From positions 1 to 63,746 of the IMG/VR virus record IMGVR_UViG_3300027985_000695: a stretch of 63,746 nucleotides of DNA, one strand, 5' to 3'. Under the pieces are notes generated by a model that saw nothing but the letters and a program-made list of their open reading frames with translations, was not told the DNA's origin and did no database searches. Made by a program: the position numbers and the translations under genes. Position 1 is the stretch's first letter; each line of letters opens with the position of its first letter. The stretch comes from a virus. This document shows, piece after piece, positions 35,328 to 35,450 of this stretch.

Positions 35328-35450
35328 GGAGCGGGGAACAGGTTGCTCTAACAGACTGAGCTATTGCGTGTTCGTTGGTCACGCAAGTGGGATTTGAACC
35401 CACGACCCACCGCTTAACAGGCGAAGTAACCCGCACCTGCGCCATCCTTC
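35328..35450 (-). ncRNA. yrlA: YrlA-type Y RNA with circularly permuted tRNA-Asn-like domain
   Basis: Element 1 opens with the shared RTGGCG and CGGGTTACTTC blocks. Inside its loop lies a tRNA shape in permuted order: anticodon loop CTGTTAA (GTT, Asn), T-arm GTGGG-TTCAAAT-CCCAC at 35403-35387, acceptor strand TTGCGTG with ACCA at 35386-35376, a 5-base link, then acceptor strand CACGCAA at 35370-35364 and D-arm GCTC..GAGC. The acceptor strands pair over all 7 bp, and ACC at 35343-35341 plus GC at 35422-35421 would complete a perfect 5-bp anticodon stem. Bacterial and phage Y RNAs next to Ro60 are known to carry tRNA-mimicking domains. The D-loop lacks the usual GG. Confidence 0.8.

What the first reader, a model, noticed from the sequence alone, without database searches (positions are those of the whole stretch)
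35341..35422. Near-complete circularly permuted tRNA-Asn inside the first Y RNA
The 3' half (anticodon loop with GTT, T-arm, TTGCGTG-ACCA) comes before the 5' half (CACGCAA, D-arm). The acceptor strands match over 7 of 7 bp and the split anticodon stem would be a perfect 5 bp if ACC were joined to GC. YrlA RNAs mimic tRNA, but this copy keeps an encoded CCA and a readable anticodon. It could be a mimic for tRNA enzymes or could yield a working tRNA after circularisation and cutting. The non-standard D-loop argues for mimicry.
Basis: partly seen in the sequence, partly recalled or inferred. Interest (0 to 1): 0.88.

Follow-up and report, generated by a model that had tools for sequence, protein, structure and literature searches.

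The report
Phage Y RNA holding a permuted tRNA
A phage carries, beside its gene for the RNA-binding protein Ro60, a small RNA that contains a whole transfer RNA in swapped order; relatives in many phages and bacteria show that it is almost certainly a tRNA look-alike rather than a working tRNA, and that it keeps the anticodon arm, a part I have not seen described for such RNAs.

Summary
On the minus strand, 35423-35341 reads as a complete tRNA in permuted order: anticodon hairpin (GTT), variable loop, T-arm, acceptor, A-CCA, 5-nt linker, acceptor, D-arm, then 27-29. It sits in the first of three tandem Y RNAs just upstream of a TROVE-VWA (Ro60/Rsr) gene. Permutation as such is known for bacterial Y RNAs (YrlA, PDB 6CU1). 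Relatives from about 180 Ro loci show that the 'special' features are family traits. The split anticodon stem covaries (27:43 and 28:42 both paired in 76 of 103 representatives, shuffles 12). About a third keep a full anticodon arm with U33. The unselected Levitt pair 15:48 is G-C 66, A-U 21 of 95. N73-CCA recurs at the exact tRNA register (9 of 77 against 1.2 expected). Most acceptor stems are capped by 2-6 nt loops, no RNA ligase or RtcB is found in the record, and one Ro locus can carry several isotypes. The working-tRNA and decayed-tandem-tRNA readings are therefore unlikely. Best reading: a YrlA-type tRNA mimic tethered to phage Ro, below the Rfam cut-off. The newest part is that the mimic is a whole tRNA including the anticodon arm. 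Function is inferred; the key Y RNA papers could not be read.

The parts
35311..35451 (-). Y RNA 1 (whole), closed by basal stem GAAGGA 35450-35445 / TCCTTC 35317-35312
   Evidence: fold z-score -3.07, basal stem in MFE and centroid; sequence
35339..35431 (-). Covariance-model match: permuted tRNA-like module with leader TTACTTC and complete anticodon arm
   Evidence: leave-out model R2, 78.2 bits, E 8.5e-18
35423..35429 (-). Conserved Y RNA leader TTACTTC; its last C serves as nt 29 of the tRNA
   Evidence: alignment of 34 relatives
35411..35423 (-). Anticodon hairpin CGC-CTGTTAA-GCG (anticodon GTT)
   Evidence: 29-31/39-41 covaries in relatives; low single-sequence probability, 0.01
35409..35410 (-). 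nt 42-43, pair with nt 27-28 (split anticodon stem)
   Evidence: covariation
35387..35403 (-). T-arm GTGGG-TTCAAAT-CCCAC
   Evidence: Rfam YrlA; pair probability 0.99
35380..35386 (-). Acceptor 3' strand TTGCGTG
35376..35379 (-). Encoded discriminator A and CCA
   Evidence: CCA enriched at this register in relatives
35371..35375 (-). Linker ACGAA joining CCA to the acceptor 5' strand
35364..35370 (-). Acceptor 5' strand CACGCAA
35345..35361 (-). D-arm GCTC-AGTCTGTTA-GAGC (GG of D-loop broken)
35341..35343 (-). nt 27-29 (ACC), second half of the split anticodon stem
35213..35296 (-). Y RNA 2: same leader (GGTGGCGAAGCGTCGGGCTACTTC), anticodon-like hairpin TCA-CTCATAA-TGA at 35271-35259, no T-arm, acceptor or D-arm
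   Evidence: fold z-score only -1.31
35139..35201 (-). Y RNA 3: minimal, leader only, no tRNA-like domain
   Evidence: fold z-score -0.67
35481..35486 (-). TTGACA, possible -35 box, 30 nt upstream of Y RNA 1 (weak -10, TACTGT 35463-35458)
   Evidence: read by eye; not reported by the promoter scan
35088..35129 (-). Likely intrinsic terminator after Y RNA 3: 12-bp perfect stem, 9-nt loop, T-rich tail
   Evidence: read by eye; loop too long for the scan
33755..35065 (-). TROVE-VWA protein (phage Ro60/Rsr), probable start ATG 35065
   Evidence: Pfam TROVE E 9.5e-21 (longer ORF 33755-35107); PDB TROVE/Ro60/Rsr chains

Best explanation
It is the tRNA-mimicking Y RNA of a phage Ro60 particle. Shown or strongly supported by sequence: three tandem Y RNAs lie upstream of a TROVE-VWA (Ro60) gene; the first carries a complete circularly permuted tRNA whose acceptor ends are joined by a short linker and whose anticodon stem is opened at nt 28/29, where the Y stem enters. 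Inferred from established Y RNA work: phage Ro binds the Y stem, and the L-shaped tRNA-like module binds a tRNA-recognising effector (PNPase in the one bacterial case described), so that Ro is tethered to that effector. Inferred here: because the anticodon arm and the 15:48 tertiary pair are kept under selection in many lineages, the effector or its enzymes probably read the whole tRNA shape, anticodon loop included. The encoded CCA is most likely a relic of the tRNA ancestor.
For: Ro gene adjacent. Rfam YrlA match. Leave-out model hit E 8.5e-18. 102 phage and 80 bacterial Ro loci: permuted units in 52 and 52 of them, full anticodon arm in 25 and 38 (many contigs are short or cut at the edge). 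Split stem 27:43 and 28:42 both Watson-Crick in 76 of 103 representatives, shuffled mean 12.3, maximum 24, and 5-20 in wrong registers; hairpin 29-31/39-41 in 36, shuffled mean 5.0, maximum 12. Covariation: 16 of 21 pairs with double changes (units preselected for the anticodon stem). U8 in 93 of 95, 15:48 G-C 66 / A-U 21 of 95, neither used by the scanner. Published topology: bacterial Y RNA 6CU1 superposes on tRNAs with a circular permutation (PMC11472068); YrlA is modified by DusA and TruB and tethers Rsr to PNPase (PMC8394870).
Against: No expression or binding data. Rfam score 36 is below the YrlA cut-off of 69 and covers only the tRNA-like part. Single-sequence folding prefers another pairing of the leader (CAGGUG with CGCCUG): -51.2 against -42.7 kcal/mol for the tRNA-like fold, anticodon hairpin probability 0.01; relatives also fold poorly at the split stem. 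The window's D-loop has lost one G of GG.
Confidence: 0.8

Rival explanations
1. Decoy: the module imitates a tRNA, anticodon loop included, to occupy host anticodon nucleases or other tRNA-directed defences. This is a variant of the mimic reading in which the target, not tethering to PNPase, is what matters.
For: A full anticodon arm is kept in 38 distinct units, with U36-A37 in 27 of 38 against 77 of 252 real tRNAs from the same loci; several isotypes can occur in one Ro locus; competitive inhibition of an anticodon nuclease was suggested for Salmonella YrlA (PMC7790460).
Against: About two thirds of the units lack a readable anticodon arm; bacterial chromosomes carry the same RNAs; in Salmonella YrlA is not cut by the nuclease. 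The U36-A37 excess may reflect shared descent.
Confidence: 0.2
2. The hairpin after TTACTTC is a Y RNA protein-binding element of its own that only resembles an anticodon arm.
For: 21 of 202 Y-like leaders without a T-arm carry a hairpin with a real tRNA anticodon loop, shuffled mean 0.16, including window Y RNA 2. The match of distinct loops to real tRNA loops is not significant against column shuffles (11 of 26, mean 8.3, 222 of 2000 shuffles as high).
Against: In units with a T-arm it lies at the exact tRNA distance, forms the upper part of a 5-bp stem with nt 27-28 from the other half, and keeps U33 in 34 of 35. Both can be true: a tRNA arm reused as a module.
Confidence: 0.25
3. Precursor of a working tRNA-Asn made by cutting at the acceptor ends and joining ACC to GC, as in permuted tRNA genes of algae and archaea.
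For: Joined sequence is called tRNA-Asn(GTT); encoded CCA; no ordinary tRNA gene in the record.
Against: Acceptor linkers of relatives are mostly 2-6 nt, often UUCG or GNRA tetraloops; no RNA_ligase or RtcB family match in the record, which may be incomplete; D-loop GG lost; discriminator A, whereas bacterial tRNA-Asn normally has G (own knowledge).
Confidence: 0.03
4. Remnant of two tandem tRNA-Asn genes (3' half of one, 5' half of the next).
For: Tandem identical tRNA genes do give this order, and repeated arrays that look like them also score 57-68 bits with the model. It is a plausible distant origin of the whole family, supported by CCA at the right register.
Against: The outer halves are missing on both sides and replaced by a conserved Y leader and stem; the same architecture with many isotypes occurs across unrelated phages and bacteria; selection keeps the split stem paired.
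Confidence: 0.02

Closest known systems
YrlA (bacterial Y RNA, Rfam RF02553; structure PDB 6CU1)
   Same: Next to Ro60/Rsr gene; 5' and 3' ends form a Y stem; T-arm, closed acceptor and D-arm in circularly permuted order.
   Different: Scores below the Rfam cut-off; leader TTACTTC; complete anticodon arm across a split stem; encoded ACCA. Strong YrlA matches from bacterial genomes also show anticodon arms (L188-L190, L193), so this may be wider than the Rfam model suggests.
Circularly permuted tRNA genes (algae, archaea)
   Same: 3' half precedes 5' half; joined sequence gives a tRNA.
   Different: Acceptor usually capped by tight loops in relatives, tied to Ro60, no ligase or RtcB found; no sign that a mature tRNA is made.
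Tandem tRNA gene pairs
   Same: Same local order of halves; can score with the model.
   Different: Outer halves absent here.

Membership tests
YrlA-type Y RNA | Encoded beside a Ro60/Rsr (TROVE) gene | tested here: met
   TROVE gene 33755-35065, same strand, just downstream
YrlA-type Y RNA | tRNA-like module: T-arm, closed acceptor stem, D-arm in permuted order | tested here: met
YrlA-type Y RNA | Stem formed by the 5' and 3' ends of the RNA | tested here: met
   GAAGGA/TCCTTC in MFE and centroid
YrlA-type Y RNA | Reaches the gathering score of Rfam RF02553 over the full model | tested here: not met
   36 bits of 69, model 23-86 only; no phage locus scanned at gathering reaches it. Hence described as YrlA-type, not filed as an RF02553 member
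YrlA-type Y RNA | Binds Ro60 and an effector (PNPase) | not testable with these tools
   needs biochemistry
Permuted tRNA gene | Joined halves give a tRNA with all arms | tested here: met
   ARAGORN tRNA-Asn(GTT) on the joined sequence
Permuted tRNA gene | Relatives keep processable acceptor ends | tested here: not met
   mostly 2-6 nt linkers, tetraloops
Permuted tRNA gene | Splicing motif (bulge-helix-bulge) at the break | not tested
   no motif search was run
Ordinary tRNA gene | Found by a tRNA finder in genomic order | tested here: not met
   0 genes in the window

The most novel reading that the evidence does not exclude
Y RNAs of the YrlA type are whole tRNAs, opened in the anticodon stem and closed at the CCA end, that keep a readable and modifiable anticodon loop; phages carry sets of them with different anticodons on Ro60 to engage tRNA-specific machinery (modification enzymes, anticodon nucleases or decay).
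Probability: 0.25. Interest if true: 0.8.

Novelty: new variant of a known kind. Interest (0 to 1): 0.6.

Why it matters
YrlA is known as a partial tRNA mimic. Evidence that many such RNAs keep the entire tRNA, with a covarying split anticodon stem, the Levitt tertiary pair and, in some lineages, N73-CCA, points to descent from a closed or tandem tRNA and makes direct tests possible: is the anticodon loop modified, does the mimic protect tRNAs from anticodon nucleases, does RNase P cut it? It also explains several phage 'tRNA genes' in GenBank as probable pieces of Y RNAs, and suggests that similar RNAs accompany the very common DUF2828 Ro-like proteins of phages.

Tried and rejected
Working tRNA and recent tandem tRNA readings (see rivals). 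'The anticodon loops follow tRNA grammar': a first test looked strong (30 of 38, shuffled 17.4), but after removing tRNA calls that overlap Y RNAs and using distinct loops it is not significant, so only U33 and the U36-A37 excess are reported. 'CCA in 15 of 91' included loci picked through Rfam hits outside Ro context; the stricter count is 9 of 77, of which one (L016, 32-nt linker in a tRNA cluster) is doubtful. Single-sequence folding supports the anticodon arm neither here nor in most relatives; covariation is the evidence. Rfam at gathering: no hit in the window. ORF 35113-35520 on the minus strand overlaps the Y RNAs; not pursued. No phage in the collection is near the first 25 kb of the window at DNA level. 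The main Y RNA papers (Chen 2014, Wang 2018, Sim and Wolin 2018, Sim 2020) are not held.

Full report
What is there. The feature lies on the minus strand. Reading 35423 to 35341 gives an anticodon hairpin CGC-CTGTTAA-GCG, nt 42-43 GT, variable loop GGGTC, T-arm, acceptor TTGCGTG, A73, CCA, linker ACGAA, acceptor CACGCAA, TA, D-arm, A26 and ACC. Acceptor 7/7, T-arm 5/5, D-arm 4/4, and ACC|GC (or AC|CGC) rebuilds a perfect 5-bp anticodon stem. ARAGORN sees no tRNA in the window and calls the joined sequence tRNA-Asn(GTT).

Surroundings. The module sits in an RNA of about 140 nt closed by GAAGGA/TCCTTC (fold z -3.07), followed by two shorter units with the same leader (GGTGGCGNNGCGTCGGGYTACTTC), a likely terminator, and a TROVE-VWA gene (Pfam TROVE E 9.5e-21) whose profile matches solved TROVE, Ro60 and Rsr chains. 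It is a Ro60 locus with three tandem Y RNAs. Rfam YrlA matches the tRNA-like part at E 3.9e-6, 36 bits against a cut-off of 69.

Relatives. Phage Ro loci came from annotated records and IMG/VR; bacterial ones from GTDB contigs. A strict scan for T-arm, acceptor, linker, acceptor and D-arm found 88 hits on the gene strand and 4 on the other in 914 kb. After grouping, 103 representatives remain; for 95 with a Y-like leader.

The anticodon arm. Positions were fixed by the T-arm and D-arm alone. nt 27:43 and 28:42 are both Watson-Crick in 76 of 103 (shuffled partners 12.3, maximum 24; other registers 5-20), and a 3-bp hairpin with a 7-nt loop stands at the exact tRNA place in 36 (shuffled 5.0, maximum 12); U33 in 34 of 35 complete arms. 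Double changes occur in both split-stem pairs (GC, AU, CG, UA, on units preselected for the arm). U8 (93 of 95) and the Levitt pair 15:48 (G-C 66, A-U 21) were not used for selection. This supports a tRNA-like tertiary fold, anticodon arm included, in about a third of the family; most of the others have the lower stem but no readable loop. Strong YrlA matches outside this group also show such arms, e.g. AGA-TCGTTAA-TCT with CC/GG in L188 and ATC-CTTTTAA-GAT with CG/CG in L189.

CCA. CCA starts one nt after the acceptor in 9 of 77 representatives with a long enough linker (1.2 expected), and in 3 of 208 at the other four offsets summed. Most linkers are 2-6 nt, often UUCG or GNRA. In tight loops the CCA has no free 3' end, so I read it as a relic of the tRNA ancestor; the window copy, with a 9-nt stretch between the acceptor strands, is on the ancestral-looking side.

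Against a tRNA product. No RNA_ligase or RtcB family match in the record (it may be incomplete), capped acceptors in relatives, D-loop GG lost in the window (one of 2 in 95). Against a recent tandem tRNA pair: outer halves absent; one Ro locus carries units of different isotypes, such as Glu and Thr in Xanthomonas phage 10KY502B. Repeated arrays that look like tandem identical tRNA genes do score with the model, so flanks must be checked; here they are Y RNA sequence.

Function (inferred). Published work has YrlA tethering Rsr to PNPase and being modified by DusA and TruB (PMC8394870), with competitive inhibition of an anticodon nuclease as a suggestion (PMC7790460). Phage TROVE proteins are noted as an RNA-repair platform (PMC7824862) and YrlA-bearing phages are mentioned (PMC7765460). 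I favour tethering of phage Ro to a tRNA-recognising effector; a decoy role is open. U36-A37 is over-represented in the arms (27 of 38 against 77 of 252 tRNAs), which would suit t6A37 modification (own knowledge), but shared descent could also give this.

Limits. Thermodynamic folding of single sequences does not predict the anticodon arm here (probability 0.01; -51.2 against -42.7 kcal/mol when forced) or in most relatives. The circular permutation of bacterial Y RNA against tRNA is published (PMC11472068); whether the anticodon arm is published I could not check, because the primary papers are not held.

Noticed in passing
window 35259-35271 (-): Y RNA 2 has the hairpin TCA-CTCATAA-TGA (a tRNA-Met-like loop) but no other tRNA part; 21 of 202 Y-like leaders without a T-arm show such a hairpin, shuffled mean 0.16.
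   Followed up: partly
L016 2986-3368, L209 2919-3185, L206 5018-5102, L205 2426-2690, L203 5839-5920: Permuted tRNA-like RNAs, several with an ACAGC leader, lie near DUF2828/DUF7788 Ro-like genes, which occur in 681 of 50,697 phage records; hhalign to phage Ro 94%. No RNA feature is annotated at these places in the records.
   Followed up: partly
L010 2831-2898, L012 2766-2840, L014 2128-2195: tRNA-Thr, tRNA-Ser and tRNA-Gln annotated in GenBank overlap these Y RNAs and are probably mis-annotations.
   Followed up: partly
L019 1649 and L029 3879: Two closely similar Y RNAs differ by CTGTTAA against CTGTGGA: positions 36 and 37 change together.
   Followed up: no
window 31694-37859 (-): Neighbouring genes match C5-cytosine methylase, Mom-like protein, and a dATP/dGTP diphosphohydrolase N-terminal domain, suggesting modified phage DNA.
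   Followed up: no
L001-L004, L008, L012: Permuted tmRNA genes (Rfam RF04321) lie near the Ro and tRNA regions of several of these phages.
   Followed up: no
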